Assembly: GCF_003815975.1 (NCBI RefSeq)
Contig: NZ_CP033932.1
Location: 1,054,001 to 1,118,000, forward strand
Length of the DNA: 64,000 bases
Source of the DNA: Chryseobacterium bernardetii
Lineage (GTDB): Bacteria; Bacteroidota; Bacteroidia; Flavobacteriales; Weeksellaceae
Direction: 5' to 3'
Positions 2,423 to 55,466 of this stretch are shown one piece after another (within the stretch, counting starts at the first letter, position 1; each line of letters opens with the position of its first letter). A model generated the notes under the pieces. That model made no database searches, had not been told where the DNA came from, and worked only from the letters and a program-made list of their open reading frames with translations. The position numbers were made by a program, and so were the translations under genes.

Positions 2423-2442
2423 ATATCAAATAACAATATTGA

Positions 2443-2538
2443 TTTTTTAAACCATTAAGGCTGTTTCAATTAAAATAAAATTGATTTTACTTCTATTAAA
2501 AAAATCAGTTTACGGTTACACTTTAATGGTTTAAAAAA
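2443..2538. repeat. Long inverted repeat between convergent genes (AACCATTAA family)
   Basis: Perfect 16-bp arms: TTTTTTAAACCATTAA at 2443-2458 and its complement at 2523-2538, with a 64-base loop that contains a further imperfect helix (AAATTGATTTT against AAAAATCAGTTT). It ends two bases before the stop codon of the minus-strand AsmA-like gene, so it probably acts as a two-way terminator. A shorter, related AACCA..TAAGA hairpin occurs at 27012-27045. Confidence 0.7.
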
Positions 2539-2539
2539 A

Positions 2540-31895: not shown

Positions 31896-31903
31896 AGAAA
31901 ACA

Positions 31904-31949
31904 AAGTCCCGAAGGGACGATTTAAGCTAAAATAGGATAAAGTCCTATT
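31904..31949 (+). repeat. Two-hairpin repeat, ftsI-murE spacer (copy 1 of 3)
   Basis: Hairpin 1 is GTCCC-GAA-GGGAC (31906-31918); linker GATTTAA; hairpin 2 is AATAGGA (31931-31937) with TCCTATT (31943-31949). The element lies between the ftsI stop and the murE ATG. Copies 2 and 3 are at 37860 and 41434. Confidence 0.75.
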
Positions 31950-31957
31950 GATATAAA

Positions 31958-33418
31958 ATGACAATAACAGAATTAGTAAACAGAATCCCAGTAATAGAGA
32001 TCCACGGAGACAACAACCGTGAGGTATCAGAATTGGTGTTTGACAGCAGAAAGGTTACAGAAAACTCTCTTTACATTGCAATGAGAGGAACAGTAGCGGA
32101 TGGACACTCATTCATTGTATCTTCTATTGAGAAAGGAGCTACAACAGTTGTTTGTGAAGAATTTCCTGAAACACTGGCAGAAAATGTAACTTATATCAAA
32201 GTAAAAGACTCTGCAAAAGCTTTAGGCCACCTTGCGTCAAACTTCTATGGAAACCCTTCTCAGAAAATTAAACTGATAGGTGTTACCGGTACCAATGGAA
32301 AAACCTCTGTTTCAACCCTCCTTTTTGATGTTTTCAAGAATTTAGGATATGATTCTGCATTATTATCAACTGTTGAGATAAGAATTGGGGAAGAAATTAT
32401 CCCAGCCACCCATACCACTCCGGATGTAATTACCATCAACAAAATTTTGGCTGAAGCAGTTGAGAAAGGGTGTGAATTTGCATTCATGGAGGTAAGCTCC
32501 CACGGAATTGCCCAAAACAGAATAGAAGGGTTACACTTCAAAGTTGCAGGATTTACCAATCTTACCCACGATCATTTGGATTACCATAAAACATTCGAAG
32601 AATACTTAAAAACGAAAAAAAGATTCTTTGATGAACTGGAAGATACAGCTATTGCCATCACCAATGTGGATGACAAAAACGGCAATGTCATGCTTCAGAA
32701 TACAAAGGCTAAAAAGAAGTCTTATGCTCTGAAAACCATGGCAGATTACCACGGGAAACTGTTAGAAGTTGATTTCAACGGAATGCTGCTGAACTTCAAC
32801 GGAAAGGAGTTCTGGACTACATTGACAGGAAAATTCAATGTATACAATCTATTATTGGTTTTCGGAATTGCTGCTGAACTTGGATTTGAGCAGGATGAAA
32901 TTCTTCAGGCCATCAGCAAATTAAAAAGAGTTTCCGGAAGATTTGAAACCATGAAATCCGATGGTGGAATTTTCTTTATTGTAGACTATGCACACACTCC
33001 GGATGCCTTAGAAAACGTTCTGGACAGCATCAACGATATCAGAACCAAAAACGAAAGATTAATCACAGTTTTCGGATGCGGAGGAGACAGAGATCACTCA
33101 AAAAGACCTGAAATGGGAAATATTGCTACTAAGAAATCAACTCTGGCAATCATCACTTCAGACAATCCGAGAACAGAAGATCCGGGACAGATCATCAAAG
33201 AAATTGAAGCAGGTGTTGAACCTCAGAACTTCAGCAAATACACCTCAATTCCCGATAGAAAAGAAGCCATAAAAATGGCGATAAAATTTGCCGAACCTAA
33301 AGATATCATTCTCGTAGCCGGAAAAGGTCACGAAAATTATCAGGAGATTAATGGTGTAAAACATCATTTTGATGACAAAGAAGTAATTAATGAGCTTTGG
33401 AAATTAATGTCTAAATAG
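31958..33418 (+). CDS. murE: UDP-MurNAc-L-Ala-D-Glu:meso-DAP ligase MurE
   Basis: 486 residues. ATP-binding GVTGTNGKTS at ~107-116, central Mur-ligase motifs TTPD, EVSSHGIAQNR and the C-terminal DYAHTPDALENVL. The signature DNPRTEDP (about residues 408-415) selects meso-diaminopimelate rather than lysine, so this organism has DAP-type peptidoglycan, as known for Bacteroidota. Cytoplasmic step of lipid II precursor synthesis. Confidence 0.97.
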   Translation: MTITELVNRIPVIEIHGDNNREVSELVFDSRKVTENSLYIAMRGTVADGHSFIVSSIEKGATTVVCEEFPETLAENVTYIKVKDSAKALGHLASNFYGNPSQKIKLIGVTGTNGKTSVSTLLFDVFKNLGYDSALLSTVEIRIGEEIIPATHTTPDVITINKILAEAVEKGCEFAFMEVSSHGIAQNRIEGLHFKVAGFTNLTHDHLDYHKTFEEYLKTKKRFFDELEDTAIAITNVDDKNGNVMLQNTKAKKKSYALKTMADYHGKLLEVDFNGMLLNFNGKEFWTTLTGKFNVYNLLLVFGIAAELGFEQDEILQAISKLKRVSGRFETMKSDGGIFFIVDYAHTPDALENVLDSINDIRTKNERLITVFGCGGDRDHSKRPEMGNIATKKSTLAIITSDNPRTEDPGQIIKEIEAGVEPQNFSKYTSIPDRKEAIKMAIKFAEPKDIILVAGKGHENYQEINGVKHHFDDKEVINELWKLMSK

Positions 33419-33866
33419 ATTGAAAGATTAAACTCATTTAACGATTTAAAAATTTGATGATGACGAAGAATTTTGAAAATTTCCCGGTATATCAAAAAGT
33501 TTAGATCTTGTTCAAAAAGTTTATGAGTTTCTTCAAAATCCAAGCTTTGAAAAAGAATTTGAATTTAATAACCAGATAAAAAGAGCGAGCTTTTCAATTA
33601 GCAACAATATTGCAGAAGGCTCAGAATATAATAACAACAGACAATTTATTAGATATTTAAAAATTGCAAAAGGCAGCTGTAGTGAAGTAAGAAGTATGCT
33701 AATTGTAAGTAGAAGATTAAAATTAGGAGATCAAAATAAAGCAGAAGAAATGATTACACTTTCGAGAGAGATTTCTTCAAACATATCAAACTTTATTAAG
33801 TATTTAAGTGAAAATATTGAGAGACCCAATCTTTAAATCTTTAAATAAATTAAATTTTTAAATAAT
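33419..33866 (+). repeat. Mirrored octamer element carrying a four-helix-bundle gene, murE-mraY
   Basis: Left arm starts on the base after the murE stop: five units all beginning ATT (33419, 33427, 33436, 33444, 33452), lengths 8-9-8-8-8. Right arm: units all ending AAT (to 33838, 33846, 33855, 33863), lengths 8-8-9-8. Read as reverse complement from outside inward, the right arm has its nine-base unit in the second position, exactly as the left arm does. The start codon (33457) and stop codon (33834) of the broken gene lie inside the innermost units, so the whole gene is the loop of the hairpin. Confidence 0.7.
33457..33836 (+). pseudogene. Frameshifted four-helix-bundle (S23/IVP family) protein
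   Basis: Starts ATG ATG ACG at 33457 and stops after 15 codons (TAG at 33502). Losing one A from the run at 33494-33498 would explain this: with six A the reading continues as YQKSLDLVQKVYEFLQ, and from 33498 the second frame runs open for 112 codons to TAA at 33834. Features such as NQIKRASFSISNNIAEGSE and FIRYLKIAKGSCSEVRSML are the diagnostic core of the four-helix-bundle family (TIGR02436) known from 23S rRNA intervening sequences and, more distantly, Avd of diversity-generating retroelements. Reconstructed length about 126 residues, which is complete for the family. The frameshift could also be programmed slippage or a sequencing error. Confidence 0.8.
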
Positions 33867-33880
33867 AAAAAAATAGAAAC

Positions 33881-35122
33881 ATGCTATACTATCTATACGA
33901 ATATCTAACCGATCATGGAATTCACGTTCCCGGATTAGGAATGTTGAAATACATCTCCTTCCGTGCCGGAATGGCAGTTTTGTTCTCATTAATTATTGCT
34001 CTTGTCTATGGGAAAAGAGTAATCAACTATCTGAGAACGAAACAAATGGGTGAATTAGTCCGTGATCTTGGATTAGATGGCCAGAAACAAAAAGAAGGAA
34101 CTCCTACCATGGGAGGGCTTATCATTATTTTGGCCACCATTATCCCTGTATTGCTGTTTACAAGAATTACGAATGTATATATTGTCTTACTGCTGGTTTC
34201 AATGTTCTGGATGGGAGCCATCGGATTCCTGGATGATTATCTGAAGAAGATCAAAAAAAATAAGGACGGGCTAAGCGGTAAATTCAAAATTGTAGGACAG
34301 GTTGGCTTAGGATTAATTGTCGGAATCACCATGTATTTCCATCCCGACATTACTGTGAAAAGAAAATATGCTGATGCAAAAGTGGTGAACAGAAACAACG
34401 TAGAGCAAAACTTCATGCCTACAGAGAAAATCACAGTGTCTACAGTACCATTTGCAAAGAACAATGAGTTTGATTACAGCGGAATCCTGTTTTGGATGAG
34501 TGAAAAAGATGCCCACGAATGGGCATGGATTGTCTTTATCCCTATCGTGATCTTCATTGTAACAGCCGTTTCCAATGGAGCCAATATCACGGACGGAATA
34601 GACGGTCTCGCAGCAGGAACCAGTGCCATAATATTGCTTACCCTTGCTCTTTTCGCCTATCTTTCAGGGAATATCATCTTTGCAGATTATCTGAATATTA
34701 TGTTCCTTCCGAATATGGGAGAAACTACCATTTTTGCTGTTGCAATGGTAGGAGCCGTAATCGGTTTCTTCTGGTACAACACCTATCCTGCCCAGGTTTT
34801 CATGGGCGATACAGGAAGTCTGATGCTGGGTGGAGTAATTGCTGTTTTAGCCATTATTTTAAGAAAAGAATTGCTGATTCCTGTTTTATGCGGAATCTTC
34901 CTGATTGAAAACCTATCTGTTATGCTTCAGGTTATTGTTTTCAAATACAGAAAGAAAAAATATGGGTTAGAATATGCCCAAAACAATAGACTGTTCAAAA
35001 TGTCACCATTACACCACCATTATCAGAAAGACGGATTTCACGAAAGTAAAATCGTAAACAGAATGATTATCATCGGCGTAATACTGGCAATTGTATGTCT
35101 GATCACCTTAAAAATGAGATAA
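33881..35122 (+). CDS. mraY: Phospho-MurNAc-pentapeptide translocase MraY
   Basis: 413 residues, about ten transmembrane helices. Motifs [31 protein letters not shown] (with the catalytic aspartates), [12 protein letters not shown] and [11 protein letters not shown] are all present. It transfers phospho-MurNAc-pentapeptide to undecaprenyl phosphate, forming lipid I at the inner membrane. A periplasmic insertion of about 60 residues near 155-215 ([16 protein letters not shown]...) is longer than in E. coli and typical of the phylum. Confidence 0.97.
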
Positions 35123-35123
35123 A

Positions 35124-35200
35124 TTTTGTAAAAAGTAAAAAGTATTAATGTAAAAAGACACCAGATACATTGTACGTTTTACATTTTACATTTTACAAAA
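35124..35200 (+). repeat. Mirrored heptamer spacer, mraY-murD
   Basis: Left arm from 35124: TTTTGTA then AAAAGTA twice and an eight-base TTAATGTA. Right arm 35173-35200: TACGTTT, TACATTT twice, TACAAAA. The outermost units are perfect complements (TTTTGTA with TACAAAA) and the others differ by one or two bases in register. Begins two bases after the mraY stop codon. Confidence 0.65.
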
Positions 35201-35208
35201 AAATAAAT

Positions 35209-36540: not shown

Positions 36541-36612
36541 AGAGTATATATGTACTACTGTATCATTGAGATCAATCTCATGAAATACATTTTACATCAA
36601 TACATGATACAA
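36541..36612 (+). repeat. Mirrored octamer spacer, murD-ftsW
   Basis: Left arm units begin GTA at eight-base steps (GTATATAT at 36544, then GTACTACT, GTATCATT); the apex is GAGAT-CA-ATCTC (36568-36579); the right arm has units of the complementary form ending TAC or ATAC at seven- or eight-base steps to about 36612. Begins directly after the murD stop. Confidence 0.6.
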
Positions 36613-36617
36613 TAATT

Positions 36618-37856: not shown

Positions 37857-37859
37857 ACC

Positions 37860-37906
37860 AAGTCCCAAAGGGACGATTTAACAAAACATCGGACACAGTC
37901 CTATTA
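37860..37906 (+). repeat. Two-hairpin repeat, ftsW-murG spacer (copy 2 of 3)
   Basis: GTCCC-AAA-GGGAC (37862-37874), linker GATTTAAC, second hairpin GGAC-ACA-GTCC (37891-37901). Ends ten bases before the murG ATG. Confidence 0.75.
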
Positions 37907-37915
37907 TATTAGACA

Positions 37916-40385: not shown

Positions 40386-40445
40386 AAAGTAATAATGTAT
40401 TTACGTATTCATGAATACATTTTACATAAATACATGAATACAAAA
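40386..40445 (+). repeat. Mirrored octamer spacer, murC-ftsQ
   Basis: Built of GTATTCAT-type units. The apex is the perfect palindrome GTATTCATGAATAC (40405-40418); the right arm continues with complementary units ending ATAC at seven- or eight-base steps up to about 40442; left units begin GTAATAAT and GTATTTAC. Starts right after the murC stop. Confidence 0.65.
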
Positions 40446-40450
40446 AATGT

Positions 40451-42899: not shown

Positions 42900-42976
42900 A
42901 TTATAAATGATGAATGATAAGCGATAAACGATCTTTTCCTTATCAATTATCATCAGTCAATGATCAATTATAATTA
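42898..42976 (+). repeat. Mirrored heptamer spacer, ftsA-ftsZ
   Basis: Left arm: five heptamers ending in AT (AAATTAT at 42898, then units ending GAT, to 42932), the first overlapping the ftsA stop codon. Right arm: five heptamers starting ATC or GTC, the outermost ATA (42942-42976). Reverse-complemented from the outside inward, the right arm gives TAATTAT, AATTGAT and so on, in step with the left arm. Confidence 0.7.
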
Positions 42977-42990
42977 TTAAAAGTATAGTT

Positions 42991-44892: not shown

Positions 44893-44982
44893 TTAATATA
44901 ACAATGTAGAAATGTACCAATGTAACAATATATACTAATCAATCATTGGTAAACTGTTACATTGATACATTGTTAAATTTGA
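44892..44982 (+). repeat. Mirrored octamer spacer, ftsZ-yqeY
   Basis: Left arm: octamers of the form AANAATGT at 44900, 44908, 44916 and 44924. Right arm: TCATTGGT (44943), AAACTGTT, ACATTGAT and ACATTGTT (44967-44974). Reverse-complemented, the right arm gives AACAATGT first, identical to the outer left unit, and the rest match within two or three bases. A fifth, weaker unit on each side reaches the ftsZ stop codon and the region before the next ATG. Confidence 0.7.
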
Positions 44983-44986
44983 AACC

Positions 44987-54950: not shown

Positions 54951-54991
54951 GTTCTTATTATTTTGTATTGTGTTTATCTTTTTTGATGATA

Positions 54992-54999
54992 CAAAACTA
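54992..54999 (-). promoter_or_regulatory. -7 promoter element of the UspA-like gene
   Basis: Minus-strand TAGTTTTG fits TAnnTTTG; leader about 37 bases. Confidence 0.45.
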
Positions 55000-55164
55000 G
55001 AACGACCAGATTAGAAGTTCTTTGGAACGGAATTAAAATGTCATTAAAGAGATTAAAATGAGATTAGAAAATTGTTAAGAGACCTTAATACGAAGTAAAC
55101 AAAAACATTTAACACACTCATTAACAATTAAATAAAATGAAATTATTAAATTTTATCGCAGATA

Positions 55165-55315
55165 AAATCTTTGCGCCTTAAAAACACATACCATATAAAA
55201 TTCTTTTGCGCCTTTGCGTTTCTCCAACATAATGAATATTTTTTGAGAAACGCAAAGGCGCAAAGATTATAAATAATAAACTCCTTTTAAGGCGCAAGAA
55301 ATCAAAGATTTTCAG
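55165..55315. repeat. Nested CTTTGCG palindromic repeat
   Basis: Inner stem: a perfect 20-bp arm 55206-55225 (containing TTTGCGCC and TTTGCGTT) with its complement 55246-55265 around a 20-base loop. Outer stem: TTGCGCCTTAAAA (55172-55184) with TTTTAAGGCGCAA (55286-55298), 13 bp perfect. The repeating word CTTTGCGn has an eight-base period. CTTTGCGCCTTTGCG-type repeats are dispersed between genes of many flavobacteria. Confidence 0.8.
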
Positions 55316-55466
55316 CAAGCAAATATTTAAAGCAACACTCTATTTACCAATGTAGTTTAATTTTTTACCGCATAACCAAATAAACTTATAGGCTAATATA
55401 AAAATGATTAAAAACAGAGGAATTTAGATTTTTAGCAATAAAGATTCTTTCAAAGCATTTTCAGCT

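What the first reader, a model, noticed from the sequence alone, without database searches (positions are those of the whole stretch)
33419..33866. IVS-like element outside rRNA: four-helix-bundle gene in the loop of a mirrored octamer hairpin
The frameshifted gene in murE-mraY belongs to the S23/IVP four-helix-bundle family. In 23S rRNA intervening sequences this family's ORF lies in the loop of a stem flanked by inverted repeats. Here the same design occurs in the dcw operon: start and stop codon sit within the innermost repeat units and the odd nine-base unit is second from the outside in both arms. The other mirrored spacers would be short copies that have lost, or never had, the gene. This suggests one element family with a protein-coding and a gene-less form, analogous to autonomous and non-autonomous transposable elements.
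Basis: partly seen in the sequence, partly recalled or inferred. Interest (0 to 1): 0.78.

Follow-up and report, generated by a model that had tools for sequence, protein, structure and literature searches.

The report
Four-helix-bundle gene between mirrored repeat arrays
A small gene of unknown function sits between two mirror-image arrays of 8-letter repeats in a bacterial cell-wall operon, and most genes of its family examined here, from many bacterial phyla, are framed by mirrored 7- or 8-letter repeats, which points to an undescribed class of mobile element that may tie together several old puzzles about short bacterial repeats.

Summary
Confirmed: the murE-mraY spacer holds a frameshifted PF05635 (23S_rRNA_IVP, four-helix-bundle, 4HB) gene between inverted arrays of 8-9-8-8-8 nt units. 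The design is general. Of 236 4HB loci from this genome, genus, phylum and other phyla, both flanks share best period 7 in 159, 8 in 26, 9 in 2, against 10, 4 and 9 of 340 control genes. The unit differs between loci; related proteins carry related units, even across phyla (r=0.17, 0/500 permutations), and unit order is mirrored beyond composition. Gene-less mirrored copies sharing one element's unit lie between co-directional genes. Two different 4HB elements occupy the carA-carB spacer in relatives. GGGAATC repeats, some cyanobacterial heptamers and, as published, the Coxiella 23S rRNA IVS share parts of this anatomy. Best reading: an undescribed mobile-element class whose 4HB protein recognises the unit and keeps or spreads gene-bearing and gene-less copies, as proposed for RAYTs and REPINs. 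Spread by the protein itself is inferred; 49 of 236 loci lack the matching period, and RNA folding gives no hairpin for the window copy.

The parts
33419..33459 (+). left arm: five phased units of 8, 9, 8, 8, 8 nt, directly after the murE stop codon
33457..33836 (+). 4HB gene (PF05635), frameshifted early in the gene; open in 7 of 11 gene-bearing genomes at the same site, dN/dS 0.08 among those 7
33823..33863 (+). right arm: mirrored units, 8, 8, 8, 9, 8 nt in + strand order, ending 17 nt before the mraY start
44893..44986 (.). gene-less mirrored spacer, 8-mer AATGTAAC, same unit as the 4HB-bearing loci L003 and L005
   Evidence: (z 5.5); RNA fold z -3.5
35123..35208 (.). gene-less mirrored spacer, 7-mer GTAAAAA/T, mraY-murD
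   Evidence: z 4.7; RNA fold z -3.8
42900..42990 (.). weaker gene-less mirrored spacer, ATTGATCA-like; similar unit to the gene-less spacers at murE-mraY in relatives
   Evidence: (z 2.0); RNA fold z -1.6
40386..40450 (.). weaker gene-less mirrored spacer, ATGTATTY units
   Evidence: z 2.5; RNA fold z -2.4
36541..36617 (.). possible gene-less mirrored spacer, ATGTATTR units, not above chance on its own
   Evidence: (z 0.6); RNA fold z -1.3

Best explanation
This is one member of a very widespread, undescribed class of small mobile element: a roughly 120-codon 4HB gene enclosed by mirrored arrays of 7-8-nt units, with gene-less copies that keep only the arrays. SHOWN: the anatomy, its breadth across phyla, purifying selection on the gene at two sites, presence, absence and replacement at one site, co-inheritance of protein type and unit type, and a strong sense-strand bias between co-directional genes. 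INFERRED: the 4HB protein (its two solved relatives have five chains per entry) binds the array in the register of the unit. By acting on arrays in trans it lets gene-bearing and gene-less copies be kept and copied to new intergenic sites, much as is proposed for a RAYT and its REPINs. The gene is assumed to have no promoter of its own (not tested) and to depend on read-through, so sense insertions between co-transcribed genes survive. When such an element lands in a 23S rRNA gene it is what has been called an IVS.
For: Period and mirror: both arms best at 7, 8 or 9 in 187 of 236 4HB loci against 23 of 340 and 5 of 58 control genes; arm pairing at <=1/100 shuffles in 170 of 236 against 11 of 340 and 7 of 58. 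Unit order mirrored beyond unit composition: z>0 in 151 of the 186 loci tested, each alone at p<=0.05 in 37. Protein-unit co-inheritance over 100 loci: Mantel r 0.201 (0/1000), cross-phylum 0.170 (0/500); unit length clusters on the protein tree (1/200). Mobility: two different 4HB elements (8-mer and 7-mer) in the carA-carB spacer, 7 and 7 of 30 genomes; murE-mraY holds the gene, gene-less hairpins, a scar or 18-19 bp in 30 genomes. Gene-less copies with the unit of a 4HB locus. In 117 genomes of one family, two-unit GGGAATC matches occur in 23 of 42 genomes with PF05635 and 16 of 75 without (p 4e-4). dN/dS 0.07-0.08. Sense between co-directional genes 153, antisense 3, of 183 loci.
Against: No catalytic motif is known to me in the protein, and by eye no target-site duplication was seen at the one Bacteroidota site examined for it. 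In G535 4HB copies move inside a different element with its own terminal repeats and 7-bp duplications. 7 of 75 family genomes without a detected 4HB gene hold >=5 two-unit GGGAATC matches, and the unit match between gene and gene-less arrays there is weak (p 0.038 and 0.19). 49 of 236 loci lack a matching period of 7, 8 or 9, and 66 of 236 do not pair at <=1/100. Of six cyanobacterial plasmid loci, three (L136, L139, L141) show no clear pairing, and in L137 the two arrays next to the gene run in the same direction. Counts are not corrected for relatedness. RNA folding of the window copy gives no hairpin.
Confidence: 0.55

Rival explanations
1. RNA-level selfish element of IVS type: the arms pair in the transcript, RNase III cuts the insert out of the mRNA, and new insertions arise through RNA, which would explain the sense-strand bias.
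For: Sense bias 153 to 3; the Coxiella IVS, with heptameric repeats beside the S23p gene, is cut by RNase III (passages of PMC4990558); two gene-less copies in the window fold clearly better than shuffles (z -3.5, -3.8); 2 of 3 proteins scanned resemble bAvd below cut-off.
Against: Window copy does not fold as a hairpin; the sense bias is also expected if the gene relies on read-through; no reverse transcriptase was looked for.
Confidence: 0.22
2. Passenger: arrays and 4HB gene are moved only by other transposons or by ordinary recombination between strains; the 4HB protein has no part in it.
For: G535: of 12 related 4HB copies read, 12 have the left and 10 the right end of an element with TIR TAACTGACGTTACGCA, and 7 of these 10 have identical 7-bp flanks, TTANTAA in 6 (read by eye); site states at murE-mraY switch between close relatives, as recombination would give.
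Against: No such terminal repeats were noticed in the Bacteroidota elements; protein type and unit type travel together across phyla; gene-less copies share the unit of gene-bearing ones.
Confidence: 0.15
3. Resident regulatory or mRNA-processing module between operon genes, bound by the 4HB protein, spread by vertical descent and drift of the unit.
For: Purifying selection; position between co-directional genes.
Against: Different elements replace each other at one site; varied neighbour genes among the loci examined; patchy presence at both sites.
Confidence: 0.07
4. Chance or slippage in low-complexity spacers.
For: Arrays are low in complexity and vary by whole units between related copies.
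Against: Controls; same pattern with G-rich units.
Confidence: 0.01

Closest known systems
23S rRNA intervening sequence (IVS) with S23p ORF, e.g. Coxiella (PMC4990558, passages)
   Same: Same protein family, inverted repeats around the gene, heptameric repeats (GACAGAT) directly upstream of the ORF
   Different: Lies in rRNA helix 45 and is cut out by RNase III; the elements here lie between protein genes and have gene-less copies. Whether the downstream arm of an IVS mirrors the heptamers was not tested
REPIN / RAYT (PMC3116915, passages)
   Same: Many short inverted repeat pairs linked to a gene that lies among the same repeats, with proposed co-evolution of repeat and protein
   Different: RAYT is a tyrosine transposase and a REP is a single short palindromic unit (about 20 nt, recalled); here a 4HB protein and tandem 7-8-mers. 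A RAYT-like ORF (motif recalled) occupies the carA-carB spacer of 4 other relatives
TAACTGA heptamer repeats (PMC4679880, abstract and passages) and cyanobacterial STRRs (recalled)
   Same: Intergenic tandem heptamers, TAACTGA in Beggiatoaceae, Cyanobacteria and five Bacteroidetes
   Different: Described as direct repeats; no 4HB gene mentioned (term search of the paper) and no mechanism of spread
GGGAATC heptamers of Xanthomonas (PMC4692102, passages)
   Same: Heptamer arrays, 70 and 75 convergent pairs in two genomes; the same unit frames some 4HB genes in the family searched
   Different: Studied there as G-quadruplex formers; no association with mobile elements reported, no 4HB or S23 mention (term search)
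MITE
   Same: Short, gene-less, inverted ends
   Different: Ends are tandem arrays whose unit differs between loci; no target duplication seen by eye at murE-mraY
Avd of diversity-generating retroelements
   Same: bAvd family matches 2 of 3 proteins scanned, below cut-off
   Different: No reverse transcriptase or template repeat was examined here

Membership tests
23S rRNA IVS | inserted in an rRNA gene | tested here: not met
   Window element lies between murE and mraY; in 20 of the 38 named loci outside Bacteroidota that were searched, Rfam shows no rRNA at gathering threshold
23S rRNA IVS | S23p/IVP (PF05635) ORF between inverted repeats | tested here: met
23S rRNA IVS | excised by RNase III | not testable with these tools
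   RNA fold of the window copy shows no arm pairing
REPIN/RAYT | tyrosine transposase gene among the repeats | tested here: not met
   The gene inside is PF05635
REPIN/RAYT | many gene-less inverted pairs with the same repeat as the gene's flanks | tested here: met
   Met for the ATTGTTAC unit; for the window element's own unit one gene-less copy was seen in 464 kb; weak as a genome-level type match elsewhere
MITE | fixed terminal inverted repeat | tested here: not met
   Arm units differ between loci
MITE | target-site duplication | tested here: inconclusive
   None seen by eye in empty against filled murE-mraY spacers; present for the enclosing element in G535 only
Diversity-generating retroelement (Avd) | reverse transcriptase and variable/template repeats next to the gene | not tested
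   Only the protein resemblance was seen
Cyanobacterial heptamer repeats (STRR, name recalled) | tandem heptamers in cyanobacterial spacers | tested here: inconclusive
   4HB loci in the phylum of a Sphaerospermopsis genome: joint period 7 in 14 and 8 in 10 of 25; 3 of 6 plasmid loci clearly mirrored. The window element itself has 8-mers and is not cyanobacterial

The most novel reading that the evidence does not exclude
The 4HB protein is the mobility or maintenance factor of a new element class, recognising a 7-8-nt unit that co-evolves with it, with no known transposase or recombinase involved. 23S rRNA IVSs, cyanobacterial heptamer repeats, Xanthomonas GGGAATC repeats and the mirrored spacers of Bacteroidota would then be gene-bearing and gene-less forms of one class.
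Probability: 0.4. Interest if true: 0.95.

Novelty: categorically new. Interest (0 to 1): 0.86.

Why it matters
Heptamer repeats in cyanobacteria, Beggiatoaceae and Xanthomonas, and the S23/IVP protein of rRNA intervening sequences, have each been described without a settled function or mechanism of spread. If one protein family and its matched unit account for them, a long-open question becomes directly testable with a binding assay and a gene deletion, and a mobile-element class whose protein family occurs in 232 of 296 genomes sampled from the window's phylum gains a name.

Tried and rejected
Chance: rejected by shuffles and by flanks of other genes (that control set was not cleared of gene-less elements). 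A first mismatched-pair control was spoiled by orthologues in the set and is not used; in it 0 of 76 loci exceeded the 99th and 22 the 95th percentile. The built-in backwards-pattern control is uninformative, because that pattern reads nearly the same backwards.

RNA hairpin for the window copy: not supported. Compensatory change in the arms of orthologues: none noticed by eye, the right arm hardly varies; the pair-counting tool was not run. G535 copies as proof of autonomous transposition: rejected once the enclosing terminal repeats were found.

Rows dropped: L299, L300, L314, L315 and L285 and L343, L349, all truncated stretches; L031 kept with a shortened end; proteins with stops left out (tree); one search used only the 186 of 236 loci with the same period in both arms, a match of at least 0.5 and at least three different units; one search left out pairs of unequal length or dS up to 0.02 (21, 7 and 10 pairs used). 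Of the 16 G535 stretches fetched, 12 were read for ends.

Full report
WHAT IS THERE. The window is G000:C1:1054001-1118000 of a 5.32 Mb one-contig genome without a name. Between murE (31958-33418) and mraY (33881-35122) lies a PF05635 gene framed by inverted arrays of phased units, 8-9-8-8-8 read inwards on both sides. The gene is frameshifted here.

COPIES IN THIS GENOME. The PF05635 search gives eight matches, three of them in one broken copy, so six loci; two of the six lie below the curated cut-off. All six have mirrored arms: units ACTCTTT, ATTTAAAR, ATTGTTAC (two loci), ACCTNNA, and one 21-nt perfect pair. Pairing beats all 200 shuffles in 6 of 6.

GENERALITY. PF05635 occurs in 116 of 118 genomes of the genus, 232 of 296 of the phylum sample, 74 of 146 of the phylum of a Sphaerospermopsis genome and 42 of 117 of an unnamed family that I take to be Xanthomonadaceae because of its GGGAATC arrays. 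One search gave 80 named loci, 38 of them outside Bacteroidota or of unstated phylum by their record titles (Acidobacteria, Chloroflexi, Planctomycetota, Nitrospinota, CPR groups, Elusimicrobia, WOR-3 and others). The one archaeal locus, cut by a contig end, is not framed on the left. With one statistic for all, the matching best period in both arms is 7/8/9 in: own and genus 62/3/0 of 76; phylum sample 18/2/0 of 27; named 48/11/1 of 80; cyanobacterial phylum 13/10/1 of 25; the unnamed family 18/0/0 of 28. Control genes: 10/4/9 of 340 in 464 kb of the window's genome and 3/1/1 of 58 in the named loci. Arm pairing at <=1/100 shuffles: 49/76, 16/27, 55/80, 23/25, 27/28, against 11/340 and 7/58. 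Many genus loci are orthologues, so those 76 are not independent. Over 183 loci the joint period is 7 in 156, 8 in 21, 9 in 1 and other in 5.

UNIT AND PROTEIN TRAVEL TOGETHER. Over 100 loci under 80% protein identity, arm similarity rises with protein identity: r=0.201, 0 of 1000 permutations; across phyla r=0.170, 0 of 500; a locus's own right arm is in the top 5% of all right arms for its left arm in 65 of 100. Proteins from several phyla share AGCTATC-like units. Period clusters on the protein tree: 12 changes against 16.9 shuffled, as low in 1 of 200; close copies help this. Consensus 7-mers hold AG in 101 of 120, 29 of 35, 37 of 50, 39 of 53, 20 of 24 and, in the unnamed family, 16 of 42 arms; no chance control was run for this.

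MIRRORED ORDER. Shuffling the units of one arm lowers the match to the other: z>0 in 151 of 186 loci tested, mean 1.04, p<=0.05 singly in 37. So the arms tend to be mirror partners and not merely two arrays of one unit. In the carA-carB 7-mer elements most mismatches fall at the variable middle positions of the unit (read).

SITES CHANGE STATE. murE-mraY in 30 genomes, own included: gene-bearing element in 11 (ORF open in 7), 18-19 bp spacer in 6, gene-less hairpin of another unit in 10, a third hairpin type in 2, and one 44-bp scar made of the left arm and the end of the right. carA-carB in 30 genomes: an 8-mer 4HB element in 7, a different 7-mer 4HB element in 7 plus one truncated (ORF of at least 110 codons found in 6 and 6), RAYT-like ORFs in 4 (motif recalled), apparent single-arm remnants in 5, and other sequence in 6. 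In the 8-mer case the left arm supplies the last codons of carA. The murE/mraY tree needs 11 changes of spacer state (shuffled mean 15.7), with weak support.

GENE-LESS COPIES. In 464 kb of the genome, mirrored 7/8-mer spacers without a gene are seen at seven places by my reading of 27 hits with z>3, all between co-directional genes; 14 of the other 20 hits lie between convergent genes and look like terminators. A search for three ATTGTTAC units (up to 3 mismatches) gave 16 hits; by my reading these include nine gene-less mirrored spacers between co-directional genes, and L005. In the unnamed family, units GGGAATC, GGGATTC and GGGACTC frame 4HB genes, and L320 shows a gene-less GGGAATC pair.

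GENOME-LEVEL LINK. Of 117 genomes, two-unit GGGAATC matches occur in 23 of 42 with PF05635 and 16 of 75 without (p 4e-4; at >=20 matches 5 and 3, p 0.13); GGGACTC at >=20 in 9 of 42 against 4 of 75 (p 0.013; at >=5 p 0.092). Matching the unit beside the gene to the arrays of its genome gives p 0.038 and 0.19, cross-matches 0.86 and 0.91 (28 loci). Not corrected for relatedness.

SELECTION AND ORIENTATION. dN/dS is 0.08, 0.07 and 0.07 in sets of 7, 6 and 6 orthologues; 0.04 for the murE end in the first set. The 4HB gene lies in sense between co-directional neighbours in 153 of 183 loci and antisense in 3; the other 27 are mixed or unresolved. Antisense cases also occur in cyanobacterial plasmids, L136 and L138.

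EVIDENCE AGAINST. RNA folding of the window element: z +0.36, arms unpaired; gene-less spacers fold better (z -3.5, -3.8, -2.4, -1.6, -1.3). Three of six cyanobacterial plasmid loci lack clear pairing, and in L137 the arrays beside the gene run the same way. In G535, 4HB copies (mostly 95-99% alike) lie inside a larger element with terminal repeats; 7 of the 10 copies with both ends have identical 7-bp flanks, and the start of a second insertion breaks the gene in 10 of 12 copies (partly by eye). So movement by other machinery does happen.

LITERATURE (all ten searches). No title or abstract start in these listings joins the 4HB family to mirrored heptamer arrays outside rRNA; most subscription papers are not held. 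PMC4679880: abstract, outline and passages. PMC4692102, PMC4990558, PMC11270868 and PMC3116915: passages only. PMC4990558 reports tandem GACAGAT heptamers upstream of the S23p start with RNase III cutting at the first repeat, and cites a 1993 idea that the ORF serves mobility. PMC11270868 reports IVP ORFs in 16S and 23S insertions of CPR bacteria.

STRUCTURE. Profile search finds two solved relatives, 2gsc (XCC0516) and 2rld, each with five chains in the entry. bAvd matches lie below cut-off.

CONCLUSION. Element class, anatomy and breadth: shown. Mobility: strongly indicated. Unit recognition by the protein: likely. Spread by the protein: inferred.

Noticed in passing
window 31896-31957 and 37857-37915: Two similar short hairpin spacers (AAGTCCC..GGGACGATTTAA) in the dcw operon; sub-threshold Rfam matches to Acido-Lenti-1 on the minus strand (E 0.21 and 0.43).
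   Followed up: partly
window 54951-55466: Inverted TTTGCGCC/TTTGCGTT arrays (z 6-7) in a 516-bp spacer between minus-strand genes; no PF05635 match there.
   Followed up: partly
window 2423-2539: Perfect 16-nt inverted pair TTTTTTAAACCATTAA 64 nt apart between convergent genes.
   Followed up: no
L354, L359, L364, L380: carA-carB spacer of relatives holds a RAYT-like ORF (motif recalled) with short hairpins instead of a 4HB element.
   Followed up: no
L381-L392 (G535): 4HB element inside a repeated element with TIR TAACTGACGTTACGCA and 7-bp flanking duplications, with a second inserted element in 10 of 12 copies; array length differs by whole units.
   Followed up: partly
L360, L363, L371, L374, L375 and L247: Another dispersed repeat, GTCATTCTGAA..AAGAATCTCA, lies beside array remnants at carA-carB; a similar stretch lies in the loop of a gene-less element in the window's genome.
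   Followed up: no
L242-L243, G000:C1:848657-849077: Two gene-less ATTGTTAC spacers flank a small gene that reads like an acyl carrier protein.
   Followed up: no
L171:2444-2620: 6S RNA just downstream of a 4HB gene (2001-2315) in an Anaerolineaceae genome.
   Followed up: no
L137: 4HB gene with long AAAAGCT and AAAAGCC arrays, running in the same direction, between cas6 and cas4 on a Pseudanabaena plasmid.
   Followed up: no
L209, L307: Rare 9-nt units in both arms.
   Followed up: no
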